This document shows positions 55,850 to 59,428 of a stretch of 64,000 bases of DNA, piece by piece (position 1 is the stretch's first letter; every line of letters starts with the position of its first letter). The translations under genes and the position numbers were made by a program. The stretch lies in the NCBI RefSeq assembly GCF_013030265.1, contig NZ_WPZQ01000006.1, positions 289,546-353,545 on the forward strand, in the 5' to 3' direction. This DNA comes from Ruegeria arenilitoris. Lineage in GTDB: Bacteria > Pseudomonadota > Alphaproteobacteria > Rhodobacterales > Rhodobacteraceae. The notes under the pieces were generated by a model. The model was given only the letters and a program-made list of their open reading frames with translations. It did no database searches and was not told where the DNA came from.

Positions 55850-55978
55850 TTTTCCCTCAAACCGGTAGCGCGAAAATTGCAGCACCGTTAAATCGCTCAC
55901 GTATATGGAGAACAAGTGCTTTCATAGCGGTAACAACAAAAAACCGCTTTCGCCGGGGCCATTTTTCTGGCCATAGCC

Positions 55979-56058
55979 GGGTCCGATCAGAGACCGGTGG
56001 ACACGTCGATGGTGTTGCCCTCTTCCAGGGTCACATATTCCTTTTTGATGTCTTCCCG
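55979..56058 (-). pseudogene. rplW 3'-end relic 1
   Basis: The last about 24 codons of an L23 gene including the stop, in the same orientation as rplW. By eye 74 of 80 bases equal 59124-59203. Translated, it keeps the rplW ending YVTLEEGNTIDVSTGL and differs only upstream (REDIKKE for RKDVKKA). Homology stops at 56058, where unrelated sequence begins. A weakened copy of the rplW terminator (GCGAAAGC core and six T on the minus strand) lies next to it at 55938-55965. Confidence 0.92.
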
Positions 56059-56184
56059 CTTGCGCTCCAAAGCGCGGGACAAGGCCGAAGGCCGCCGCGC
56101 CAGCGACTGCCCGTCCCAGCGGGCTGGCGCTTTGGGGACGTTTGCTCCTCGCTATAAGGTCGGATGTATTTGGCATCATAAAGC

Positions 56185-56207
56185 GCGCTGTACAGACGTT
56201 ACAGCGC
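56185..56207. repeat. inverted repeat after the desaturase gene
   Basis: Perfect arms GCGCTGTA/TACAGCGC, 7-base loop, 73 bp beyond the desaturase stop. A terminator without a T-run or a protein-binding site. Confidence 0.45.
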
Positions 56208-56279
56208 CATCCCACGGGCAGTCGATGGCGCGGCTCATCGCGTTGCTCGGGCGGTTCAGATCAGGGACGGTTTGCCCCT

Positions 56280-57314
56280 TCACCCATAAAGCGCGCGGGC
56301 CTCGGCGAAGGACAGCAGGCGGCGGTCCTTCTCATCCCACAGATGCAGTCGCGCGTTGGCGAGGCTCTCGCGGATGGTCATCTGATTGCTGTTGGCCAGT
56401 TCGTCGTGATCGCGCAGCACCTCGGTCAGGCGGTAGAACGGAATGCGGCTGTACAGATGGTGCACATGGTGGATGCCGATATTGGCGCTGAACCACTGCA
56501 GCACAGATGGCAGGATGTAATGCGAGCTACCGTGAAGGGCCGCCTCATGCAGTTGCCAATCGTCGTCCGAATCCCAATGCGTTTCCTCGAACTGGTGCTG
56601 TACGTAGAACAGCCACACTCCGGCCGTTGCAGCGATCAGGGTTGATGGCAGAAAGATCAGCAAGACCGGCATTATACCGCCAAAGTAGTAGACGGCCAGA
56701 AGAGCGGCCAGGATGGCAACATTGGTGCCCATCGCGCTGACCCAGAACCTCACACTGCCCGTCAAACCCAGCGGGAGGCGGTTCTGGAACAGGAACAAAT
56801 AACCGGGGCCAAGCACGAACAGAGTAATGGGATTTCGGTAAACGCGATACCAGAACCGGTTCATGGCAGTCTTGGACTGGTACTCGGCCACTGTCAGCGT
56901 GTGGATATCGCCCATTCCCCGTTTGTCCAAATTGCCCGCGCTGTTGTGGTGCGTAGAATGCGTGCGGCGCCAGACATCGTAGGGCGTCAGTGTCAGCACG
57001 CCGATAATCCGTCCAACCCAGTCACTGACTGTCCGGTTCTTGTAGAACGCTCCGTGCCCGCAATCATGCTGGATCGCAAACAGGCGCAGCAGGAACGCCG
57101 CATTCAGGACCGCAATCGCAAATGCCAACCAGTAGCTGACGGATAGCGCCATCCAGGACAGCGCCCAAAGCACAAAAAATGGGATAATACTGACACCCAG
57201 CTCAAAGGAACTGCGCCACTGATTAGGCTCACGGTATTTGGCAAGCGTCGAAACCCAATCCCGTGCGGCGGTTTTATCCGGGTTTTCCCGGGTCGAGAGA
57301 GAGGTTTCGGTCAT
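56280..57314 (-). CDS. membrane fatty acid desaturase
   Basis: 344-aa acyl-lipid desaturase of the DesA/delta-12 type. The three histidine boxes are HDCGH, HSTHH and HHVHH, between paired hydrophobic segments. It inserts double bonds in membrane fatty acids using di-iron and molecular oxygen. It lies between rplW relics 1 and 2 and is the only gene of that interval. Confidence 0.9.
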   Translation of the reverse strand: MTETSLSTRENPDKTAARDWVSTLAKYREPNQWRSSFELGVSIIPFFVLWALSWMALSVSYWLAFAIAVLNAAFLLRLFAIQHDCGHGAFYKNRTVSDWVGRIIGVLTLTPYDVWRRTHSTHHNSAGNLDKRGMGDIHTLTVAEYQSKTAMNRFWYRVYRNPITLFVLGPGYLFLFQNRLPLGLTGSVRFWVSAMGTNVAILAALLAVYYFGGIMPVLLIFLPSTLIAATAGVWLFYVQHQFEETHWDSDDDWQLHEAALHGSSHYILPSVLQWFSANIGIHHVHHLYSRIPFYRLTEVLRDHDELANSNQMTIRESLANARLHLWDEKDRRLLSFAEARALYG

Positions 57315-57475
57315 GCGCCTGCCATGTCTTTTGCTTGTTGAAAGCCGGATAGACTACCAGCCCGCCATAGCAAGCGAATTGTGCAAAACAAGATTGTTTG
57401 GCGCTCAAATTTCTGGGTCGCAGCTTAAGAAGAGGCCCCACATGTGCAGGACCTTTACCTCTTTTTAGAGGCGTT

Positions 57476-57555
57476 TCCGATCACGGACATTTGGACAGGC
57501 CGATATGTGTTGCTCTCTACCAGGGTCATCTCTGCTTTTGACGCGTCTCCGATGG
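57476..57555 (-). pseudogene. rplW 3'-end relic 2
   Basis: A more degraded copy of the rplW end in the rplW orientation. It keeps TCCGATCA around the stop, CCAGGGTCA in the middle and TGCTTTTGACG farther in, aligned in register with 59127-59205 with one inserted base and one short deletion. A small hairpin CCTC/GAGG lies where the terminator would be. It no longer codes. Confidence 0.78.
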
Positions 57556-57567
57556 GTAGCGATACTC

Positions 57568-58248: not shown

Positions 58249-58341
58249 GATCTTCAATGTAACTTGGATATCCCCGGCGACCATAGTTCAGAGGCAAAAA
58301 CAGCAAAGACACGTCTTGAGCATTCACAGCAATAGACACAC

Positions 58342-58366
58342 AAAAAAACGCTTTGGTGCAGCAAAG
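58342..58366 (-). terminator. terminator of rplW relic 3
   Basis: 6-bp stem GCTTTG/CAAAGC with loop CTGCAC and a T7 run on the minus strand, four bases past the relic stop. It is in the position of the native rplW terminator and has kept its form. Confidence 0.75.
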
Positions 58367-58472
58367 CCGATCAAAGACTGGTGCTCACATTGATTGTACC
58401 ACCCTTTTCCGGACCCATATGTGCTTTTCGGCGACTTTCCGACCGCCCGGTCGGCCTCGAAACCGCGTGACC
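58367..58472 (-). pseudogene. rplW 3'-end relic 3
   Basis: About 105 bp similar to 59128-59234. It keeps CCGATCA around the stop, CATATG-GCTTTT in the middle (one base changed), GACTTTCCGACCGCCC, and CGAAACCGCGTGACC at the far end. It covers more of the gene than relic 1 but has more substitutions and no open frame. Confidence 0.85.
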
Positions 58473-58614
58473 ATCTTGCTGCTTTAGTGACACTCAAATC
58501 CGGCATCATTCACCCTGCCTGATCTAAACTCCAACTCCATTGACCTGAGATTTTGCCATAGCCTGTCACAATGCTAGGCTTCGCTACGATTTCCATAGCT
58601 CAAAGGACGCGACC

Positions 58615-59019
58615 ATGAAGAAGATACTCCCACTGGTCTTTGCACTTTCCCTAATCGGGTCATCCGTGCAGGCGCAAAGAGTGGCAGACGTTAAGTTTGC
58701 ACCCGGAAACTACGGAACCATGGTCAACGGTACAATAACTGGCGATGAGTATTTCGACTATAAACTCGGTGCCAATGCAGGCCAAAAAATGTTTGTCGAG
58801 CTGAACGTGGCCGATACCAACGGCAATGGCACGATTTACTACAACATCCTGCCCCCTGACAGCGATGGTGCCGCGATCTACAATGGATCCATCAACGGCA
58901 ATACCACCACAATCGATCTGCCCGAAAGCGGAGACTATACAATCCGTGTATACCTTATGGGCAATGACCGGGACGCCGGTAAAACAGTTGGGTACAATAT
59001 CGATCTGTCGATTCAGTAA
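58615..59019 (+). CDS. secreted PliG-like g-type lysozyme inhibitor
   Basis: 134-aa exported protein; signal peptide MKKILPLVFALSLIGSSVQA. The mature part follows the pattern of the periplasmic inhibitors of g-type lysozyme: VKFAPGNYGTMVNGTITGDE, DYKLGANAGQKMFVEL, and LPESGDYTIRVYLMGNDRDA. The PliG family has the same S/T-G-x-Y-x-I/L-R-V core. It would protect the cell wall against animal or phage lysozymes. It is on the plus strand, between relic 3 and rplW. Confidence 0.65.
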   Translation: MKKILPLVFALSLIGSSVQAQRVADVKFAPGNYGTMVNGTITGDEYFDYKLGANAGQKMFVELNVADTNGNGTIYYNILPPDSDGAAIYNGSINGNTTTIDLPESGDYTIRVYLMGNDRDAGKTVGYNIDLSIQ

Positions 59020-59077
59020 ACGACTGCGGTGCAGACTTGCTCAAATCTCCGGATCAACATGCTTCTGAACTGGCAAA

Positions 59078-59103
59078 AGAAAAACCCCCGCTTTCGCGGG
59101 GGC
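59078..59103 (-). terminator. terminator after rplW
   Basis: Perfect 7-bp stem CCCCCGC/GCGGGGG with loop GAAA and a T-run on the minus strand, 28 bp past the rplW stop. It ends the first ribosomal unit. Confidence 0.95.
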
Positions 59104-59131
59104 CTTAATCTCATCCCAAAGACGGGTCCGA

Positions 59132-59428
59132 TCAGAGACCGGTGGAAACGTCGATGGTGTTACCCTCTTCCAGGGTCACATATGCTTTTTTGACGTCTTT
59201 CCGACGGCCCAGCTGGCCACGGAACCGCTTGACCTTGCCTTTGGTCACGGTGGTGTTCACCGCTTTGACCTTCACACCAAACAGCGCCTCCACGGCCTCT
59301 TTGATCTGCGGCTTGTTGCTGTCGATCGCCACTTCAAAGACAACCGCGCCATTCTCAGATGCCATGGTCGACTTTTCGGTGATGATCGGCTTGCGGATCA
59401 CGTCGTAGTGTTCTGCCTTCGCGCTCAT
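59132..59428 (-). CDS. rplW: 50S ribosomal protein L23 (uL23)
   Basis: 98-aa exit-tunnel protein that docks SRP and trigger factor. YDVIRKPIITEKSTM start, VKRFRGQLGRRKDVKKAYV and the end LEEGNTIDVSTGL. It is coupled to rplD by a four-base overlap. It is the last gene of the first unit; three relics of its 3' end lie downstream before rplB. Confidence 0.98.
   Translation of the reverse strand: MSAKAEHYDVIRKPIITEKSTMASENGAVVFEVAIDSNKPQIKEAVEALFGVKVKAVNTTVTKGKVKRFRGQLGRRKDVKKAYVTLEEGNTIDVSTGL

What the first reader, a model, noticed from the sequence alone, without database searches (positions are those of the whole stretch)
55938..59234. Array of three rplW 3'-end relics separating single-gene cargo in the rplW-rplB gap
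Three copies of the rplW end (55979-56058, 57476-57555, 58367-58472) lie in the same orientation between rplB and the intact rplW. Each includes the stop codon, and relics 1 and 3 also keep terminator remains. The intervals hold one gene each: a desaturase, an unknown 226-aa protein, and a PliG-like inhibitor; a TIR gene lies beyond relic 1. This is the pattern expected if cargo repeatedly entered at the 3' end of rplW and restored it, as integrative elements do at tRNA ends, but no integrase is present. I know of no described element of this kind at rplW.
Basis: partly seen in the sequence, partly recalled or inferred. Interest (0 to 1): 0.93.

Follow-up and report, generated by a model that had tools for sequence, protein, structure and literature searches.

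The report
Cassette array behind a ribosomal gene
In Ruegeria, a genus of marine bacteria, single accessory genes are lined up behind the ribosomal gene rplW and separated by copies of rplW's own tail and terminator; no integrase gene was found there, and the row is likely built and reshuffled by the cell's ordinary homologous recombination.

Summary
Three same-orientation copies of the rplW 3' end lie between rplB and rplW, with alignment scores 152, 71 and 51 against a maximum of 33 in 300 shuffles. Of 53 genomes of the genus (own included), 32 carry at least one such tail. Most tails run from about rplW nt 192-223 through stop codon and terminator, and 39 of 56 begin within 25 nt of a cargo gene's stop codon, against 5.6% of random gap positions. 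Cargo differs and cassette order is permuted. Two genome pairs show an empty and a filled site. No tyrosine integrase was found in the gaps. Partial copies of a neighbouring oxygenase gene and of rplP occur too, and flanking genes are mosaic, so additive homologous recombination is the most likely driver. A recombinase acting from elsewhere is not excluded, and how a new gene first gains its tail is unexplained. I class it as a new variant of integrase-free recombination hotspots, with an integron-like layout.

The parts
59132..59428 (-). intact rplW (L23), 98 aa; insertion side of the array; predicted hairpin at about rplW nt 205-230
59081..59106 (-). terminator-like hairpin with T run behind rplW
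58615..59019 (+). 134-aa ORF opposite to rplW, first cargo gene; no Pfam match (reader: PliG-like)
58362..58491 (-). tail relic 3: model nt 181-306; terminator-like hairpin at 58350-58367
57568..58284 (-). 238-aa ORF, cassette gene 'c1', no Pfam match; relatives in 14 of 47 loci tested
57428..57554 (-). tail relic 2: model nt 223 to terminator end; begins 13 nt after the stop of the 238-aa ORF
56280..57314 (-). fatty acid desaturase, cassette gene 'c0'; relatives in 24 of 47 loci tested
56094..56234 (.). inverted-repeat (REP-like) element between desaturase and relic 1; the relic starts 201 nt after the desaturase stop
55938..56078 (-). tail relic 1: model nt 206 through stop codon and terminator
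54866..55915 (-). TIR-domain gene (PADLOC TIR-TM, 1.7e-61), outermost gene next to rplB, no tail found behind it
53819..54661 (-). rplB (L2), right border of the array

Best explanation
The rplW-rplB gap holds a cassette array in which copies of the rplW 3' end (mostly its last 75-105 nt plus the terminator) separate single genes and mostly begin right behind a gene's stop codon, and which likely grows when incoming DNA recombines at the rplW 3' end, restoring rplW and leaving its old tail as the far border of the newcomer. Shown: the repeated tails, their layout, no integrase found in the gaps, permuted order of cassettes, and two empty/filled site pairs between species. Inferred: the driver is homologous recombination of DNA from related cells (possibly carried by the gene transfer agent or by uptake), with rplC-rplD-rplW as the long homology arm and either rplB or a tail copy as the second arm. 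A cassette that already has a tail on both sides would then be portable: it can be added to, or deleted from, any related array by recombination between tails. How a new gene first becomes joined to a tail right after its stop codon is not explained; joining through a short stretch of homology during such an event is my guess.
For: Tails in 32 of 53 same-genus loci, 1-4 per locus, and in 3 of 64 other named loci. 51 of 56 hits in rplW orientation; the other 5 lie in four loci where rplB itself is inverted. 49 of 56 reach model position 340 or more of 353, i.e. the terminator. Empty/filled pairs. Permuted orders, e.g. c1-c3-c0 in L131, c0-c3 in L136, c7-c0-c3-c1 in L153, c12-c1-c0-TIR in the window. 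Minimum changes on the rplB-rpsC tree: c0 14, c1 8, c3 10, c7 2 (no shuffle control). No integrase found. Orthologous relics in three related arrays diverge about as fast as fourfold sites of neighbouring genes: r1 0.10, 0.23, 0.24 and r3 0.24-0.25 against 0.16-0.18 in c7; r2 0.07-0.10 somewhat below 0.09-0.14 in c0, so they look like scars. Partial copies of the oxygenase gene in the rplP-rpmC gap (3' tails in five loci at model nt 534-546, longer ones in L131 and L164, and one 5' head in L162) and of rplP (L130) point to a general process, not one bound to rplW. Genes upstream are mosaic, and same-cassette pairs are more alike in the rplW body too (nt 100-190: median obs/exp 0.52 against 1.63 for different-cassette pairs; means 0.94 against 1.31). 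The own genome has a GTA protein (PF13547, 2.2e-153) and ComEC (PF03772, 1.3e-59). Hotspots without mobility genes attributed to recombination at flanking core genes are documented (PMC5635113, passages).
Against: Double crossover at flanking genes replaces a gap; it does not by itself add a tail, so an extra joining event is needed for each cassette type. Left edges of unrelated cassettes cluster (44 of 56 hits start at nt 181-223), which plain recombination does not predict. Stop codons sit at the junction far more often than at random positions (the 56 hits are not independent, several share a cassette). No rplB-head relics were found (0 hits in 89 gaps against 43 for rplW), although recombination should be symmetric. 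In the far-related subset, same- and different-cassette pairs do not differ at nt 190-228 (1.19 against 1.17). A comparison of tails by left or right neighbour gave no usable signal. The 47-locus tree comes from a region that may itself recombine.
Confidence: 0.5

Rival explanations
1. A site-specific recombinase encoded elsewhere in the genome inserts circular cassettes at a site in rplW near nt 205-230, as integrases do at 3' ends of tRNA genes or as integron integrases do with cassettes.
For: Left edges of unrelated cassettes cluster at nt 181-223, where a hairpin with arms TTCCG.GGCC/GGCC.CGGAA is predicted. Stop codon next to the repeat and array order are integron-like. In the rplW-rplB gap only rplW tails are seen, no rplB heads. 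In some same-cassette pairs similarity rises just behind nt 228 (e.g. L119/L157: 0.13 at nt 190-228, 0.03 behind).
Against: No integrase homologue in the gaps. Edges differ by cassette type. Relics show no extra-conserved core: identity 0.84 at nt 225-240 against 0.80-0.83 at nt 240-297. Cargo ends do not clearly keep complementarity to the right arm (mean z 0.73 over rows that include some still holding the rplW arm). Oxygenase and rplP pieces occur as well. No tail on phages; on plasmids only Sinorhizobium.
Confidence: 0.25
2. The array is the eroded remains of accreted genomic islands that once carried integrases, now lost from the genomes examined.
For: Same layout as accretion at a 3' end; relics decay roughly like neutral sequence.
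Against: Little-decayed tails exist (L136 3804, 141 bits; L139, 134 bits; L133, 133 bits) and still no integrase in the gaps; many intervals hold one complete gene, not broken islands.
Confidence: 0.12
3. Cassettes are born through RNA: a reverse transcriptase copies the 3' end of rplW mRNA from its terminator, switches template at the rplW hairpin to another mRNA ending behind a stop codon, and the product recombines into rplW.
For: Would explain 3' tails, inclusion of the terminator, edges at the hairpin, and junctions right behind stop codons. One gap protein of 26 scanned matches RVT_1 (6.8e-10), which is no link by itself.
Against: Speculative and untested; some cargo lies opposite to rplW; it does not explain where cassette promoters would come from.
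Confidence: 0.06
4. The tail plus terminator is kept for a function as a portable 3'UTR, and the repeats are selected copies rather than scars.
For: The terminator part is still aligned in 49 of 56 hits; one of three orthologous relics diverges somewhat less than fourfold sites.
Against: The other two diverge above the fourfold rate in 5 of 6 pair comparisons; several relic folds lose the pairing of the intact tail.
Confidence: 0.05

Closest known systems
[quoted passage not shown] 2017, PMC5635113; passages read)
   Same: Turnover of accessory genes between two conserved genes, no integrase found, mosaic flanks.
   Different: That model is double crossover at flanking genes. Here the gene set also grows by accretion, and additions leave a tail copy of the same border gene.
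Integrons and integrase-less cassette arrays (CALINs; search listing and abstract starts only)
   Same: Rows of mostly single genes, a repeat directly behind the stop codon (for integrons recalled), permuted order.
   Different: The repeat is the 3' end of a ribosomal gene with its terminator. No tyrosine integrase was found in the gaps; attC features were not tested.
Integrative elements at 3' ends of conserved genes (recalled: tRNA genes, rlmH for SCC, rplL/rpmG/rpsI for streptococcal elements)
   Same: The gene is restored by the incoming copy and the old tail is left at the far end.
   Different: No integrase found, cargo of one or few genes, variable left edges.
Core defence hotspots of Pseudomonas aeruginosa (PMC10250203; passages read)
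   Same: Consistent flanking core genes, not obviously part of a mobile element, defence genes present (TIR-TM in the window, AbiU in L145).
   Different: Here the tailed cassettes that could be named are metabolic (desaturase, YceI, aldose epimerase, sulfatase); tail scars mark the steps.
Variable region between two ribosomal operons in Ruegeria pomeroyi (PMC3305630; passages read)
   Same: Authors noted a 1.8-kb region of high variability in the same gene cluster.
   Different: Their gap is rpmD-rplO, not rplW-rplB; the passages read mention no repeats.

Membership tests
Integrative element with tyrosine integrase at a gene 3' end | integrase gene within the element | tested here: not met
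   No hit of a profile or single searches from 7 integrases of the own genome in 6980 frame stretches of 125 loci; controls recovered (one search was a first try with three wrong query frames). Pfam on 127 gap proteins of 110 aa or more: no integrase or resolvase family among the families shown (25 of 29, 22 of 22, 14 of 14, 13 of 13); one protein is an IS1595-type transposase.
Integrative element with tyrosine integrase at a gene 3' end | 3' end of the target gene duplicated at the far border, target gene restored | tested here: met
Integrative element with tyrosine integrase at a gene 3' end | fixed identity block / crossover core | tested here: inconclusive
   Edges at nt 181-223 in 44 of 56 hits but different by cassette; no extra-conserved core
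Integron or CALIN | integron integrase gene nearby (for integrons; CALINs lack it) | tested here: not met
   limited to the fetched gaps; the rest of the genomes was not searched for IntI
Integron or CALIN | attC recombination sites | not tested
   No attC model was available; the repeat derives from rplW
Integron or CALIN | single genes, each ending next to the repeat, in permuted order | tested here: met
   39 of 56 tails within 25 nt of a stop codon against 5.6% of 9400 random positions; orders
Recombination hotspot without mobility genes | variable cargo between conserved flanking genes | tested here: met
   gap 1115-6236 nt in 39 same-genus loci, 96-8012 nt in 64 others; 279 gap ORFs, 128 singletons after clustering, duplicate loci included
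Recombination hotspot without mobility genes | raised recombination in flanking genes | tested here: inconclusive
   Uneven pairwise distances upstream of rplW; no formal test against the core genome
Core defence hotspot | defence systems recurrent in the gap | tested here: inconclusive
   97 PADLOC families matched among 140 gap proteins, 25 shown, several models per protein; of 10 Ruegeria proteins looked at singly 3 matched: TIR-TM, AbiU and, weakly, LeoBC. No enrichment test.

The most novel reading that the evidence does not exclude
A gene-capture platform of a kind not described before: the 3' end and terminator of a ribosomal protein gene serve as the attachment repeat of an integron-like cassette array that has no integrase, so that any gene joined to the tail becomes portable between species, either by host recombination alone or by an undiscovered recombinase acting from elsewhere on the hairpin at about rplW nt 205-230.
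Probability: 0.35. Interest if true: 0.88.

Novelty: new variant of a known kind. Interest (0 to 1): 0.74.

Why it matters
Half of the hotspots in one survey lacked evidence of mobile elements (PMC5635113, passages), and transfer by flanking recombination is expected to leave no element-derived scars (PMC10250203, passages), so how such places are filled is hard to see. Here many steps leave a scar, which makes the order and borders of integrase-free gene capture readable, in a genus with cultured strains; the window's genome carries a gene transfer agent gene. How a gene becomes joined to a cassette repeat right behind its stop codon, open for integrons too (recalled), appears here in a second setting.

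Tried and rejected
Chance similarity: rejected. Phage or plasmid carriers of the tail: none in phages; in plasmids only four Sinorhizobium records, one annotated there as L23. Integrases in the gaps: none; my first try took the wrong reading frame for three of seven queries, so I repeated it with the right frames and controls and scanned 127 gap proteins against Pfam. Sharp switch of ancestry at one nucleotide: mixed result; flanks are mosaic, some pairs switch behind nt 228, others are alike further upstream. Kept complementarity at the junction: weak, not specific. Linkage of tail sequence to left or right neighbour: unreadable; pairs sharing neither neighbour were the most alike over nt 226-297. 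Functional 3'UTR: weakened. rplB heads: 0; rplD-derived: 1 weak hit in L126 (34.8 bits), not followed up. Strict '3' tails only': not true for the oxygenase gene, which has one 5' head piece in L162. Weak rplR end/3'UTR hits in five loci (20-26 bits) were not followed up. rpmD tails: none in the 46 loci with rpmD. The G034 tail 1.1 Mb from its rplW first looked like a second insertion site; it sits beside a desaturase, a sulfatase-like gene and rplO (by eye), so it more likely reflects rearrangement of the ribosomal cluster. A model of the coding part alone missed or shortened relics; adding the terminator corrected this. Rows left out of counts: 7 named loci that duplicate same-genus genomes (L003, L004, L005, L006, L008, L009, L012), 9 of 80 named loci without rplW in the fetched stretch, G046 without an rplW match. 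Kept in the 53 although their contigs end early: L132, L146, L159. The family-wide search (394 genomes) cut off its table of places, so relics outside the genus are undercounted. Seven genomes other than the own had a second match there: in G212 and G411 a second full-length rplW, in G075 two pieces of one gene, in G172 a weak 35% match, in G427 the same tail as L053; G331 and G364 I could not read. Papers: searches listed no paper that I recognised as describing tail relics or an element at rplW; subscription papers and preprints are mostly not held.
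Full report
What was checked. rplW, its terminator and the gap to rplB were aligned. Three tail copies stand far above shuffles. They are listed in 'parts' with borders from the terminator-inclusive model.

How wide it is. I fetched the rplW region of 52 other genomes of the genus plus the own one and 80 named loci. Seven named loci duplicate same-genus genomes and were dropped from counts; 9 of the 80 have no rplW in the stretch. 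The gap is 1115-6236 nt (median 2685) in the 39 same-genus loci where rplW and rplB lie in order, and 96-8012 nt in 64 others, 18 of these under 400 nt. Tails of 24 bits or more occur in 32 of 53 same-genus loci, 1 to 4 each; three of the 53 (L132, L146, L159) are contig stubs of 1.5-4.5 kb. Among 64 other named loci 3 have tails (Marimonas arenosa L053, an Ascidiaceihabitans MAG L072, an alphaproteobacterial MAG L037).

Anatomy. Of 56 tail hits, 51 lie in rplW orientation and the other 5 in four loci where rplB itself is inverted. 49 reach the terminator part and 44 start at rplW nt 181-223. Eight start earlier; 6 of these (L119, L152, L154, L156, L161, L162) belong in my judgement to one cassette type whose gene end aligns by chance, since identity in the ungapped print begins near nt 206. 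Four start later (L132, L142, L149, L152). 39 of 56 tails begin within 25 nt of the stop codon of an ORF of 80 aa or more in the same orientation; 5.6% of 9400 random gap positions do so. The hits are not independent, because related genomes share cassettes; cassette genes with this layout include the desaturase (c0), the unknown family of the window (c1), a YceI-like protein (c3), an 86-aa protein (c6), an aldose 1-epimerase (c7), a sulfatase (c136) and, in L072, a 291-aa ORF. In the window the unknown ORF ends 13 nt before relic 2, the desaturase 201 nt before relic 1 with a REP-like inverted repeat between them, and the 134-aa ORF points the other way.

Exchange. Cassette order differs between genomes: c1-c3-c0 in L131, c0-c3 in L136, c7-c0-c3-c1 in L153, c12-c1-c0-TIR in the window. 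Two pairs show the site empty and filled. In L144, rplW tail, terminator, spacer and a 433-aa gene follow each other; in L150 the same spacer and gene stand behind a relic, with other genes inserted before it. L164 and L138 show the same with a 303-aa gene and the desaturase. These are different species, not strains. On a tree from rplB to rpsC (47 loci), the desaturase needs at least 14 changes of state, c1 8, c3 10 and c7 2; that region may recombine itself and no shuffle control was run. In three related arrays two of three orthologous relics diverge above the fourfold rate of a neighbouring gene in 5 of 6 pair comparisons, the third somewhat below it, so they behave largely as scars.

Mechanism. 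No tyrosine-integrase homologue was found in the gaps, and Pfam scans of 127 gap proteins show no integrase or resolvase family, but one IS1595-type transposase and one reverse transcriptase domain (4 of 29 families not shown). Against a dedicated rplW-specific recombinase also stand the partial copies of the oxygenase gene in the rplP-rpmC gap, among them one 5' head, and of rplP, the differing left edges, and the lack of a conserved core. For it stand the clustering of edges near a hairpin, the lack of rplB heads, and pairs whose similarity rises just behind nt 228. Upstream genes are mosaic, and same-cassette pairs are more alike than expected in the rplW body (median obs/exp 0.52 against 1.63 at nt 100-190; means 0.94 against 1.31; no difference at nt 190-228 in the far-related subset). 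The own genome has a GTA protein and ComEC, so DNA from relatives could plausibly arrive. I therefore put additive homologous recombination first, at 0.5, and leave the birth of new cassettes open.

Comparison. The nearest known kind is the hotspot without mobile elements attributed to recombination at flanking genes (PMC5635113, passages); the layout resembles an integron array (listing only). For P. aeruginosa core defence hotspots such recombination was named as a possibility that would leave no element-derived scars (PMC10250203, passages); here scars are left. A variable region in the same cluster, between rpmD and rplO, was noted in R. pomeroyi (PMC3305630, passages). Searches listed no account of tail relics at rplW that I recognised.

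Noticed in passing
L117, L118, L119, L122, L125, L141, L142, L147, L157: In 9 same-genus loci rplB points against rplW: blocks of the S10/spc cluster are inverted. In L118 rplB to rplP are inverted while rplN and later genes are not.
   Followed up: partly
L130 11421-11513, L151 10267-10354, L154 10447-10540, L155 9821-9899, L164 6464-6640 and 7313-7413, L131 12880-13295, L162 6296-6385: Partial copies of the 2OG-Fe(II) oxygenase gene of the rplP-rpmC gap: 3' tails in six loci (five start at model nt 534-546) and one 5' head in L162 upstream of its intact gene. In L164 one relic is split by about 670 nt that include an ORF.
   Followed up: partly
L130 9326-9545: A partial copy of rplP with an internal deletion.
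   Followed up: no
window 43046-45124 and L131 8635-10532: A CBS-type protein and a transporter (names by eye from the translations) lie behind rpmD in the window but in the rplP-rpmC gap in L131: cargo seems to change gaps.
   Followed up: no
L121, L129, L133, L135, L145 at 1294; L128 4727; L153 5154: The first possible start (TTG) of the unknown 210-aa cassette gene overlaps the stop codon of rplW or of a relic; the true start may lie further down.
   Followed up: no
window 56094-56234, L113, L114, L138, L164: A REP-like palindrome with the core CAG(C/T)GACTGCCCG recurs in these gaps.
   Followed up: no
gap next to rplB in Ruegeria loci: Some outermost genes are defence-like (TIR-TM, AbiU/AIPR, HNH, protein kinase), others unknown, while the tailed inner cassettes that could be named are metabolic; no statistics.
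   Followed up: partly
L126 1243-1568 of the gap, i.e. counted from the rplW stop: A weak rplD-like stretch (34.8 bits).
   Followed up: no
L119, L123, L133, L141, L144: Weak second copies of the rplR end/3'UTR (20-26 bits).
   Followed up: no
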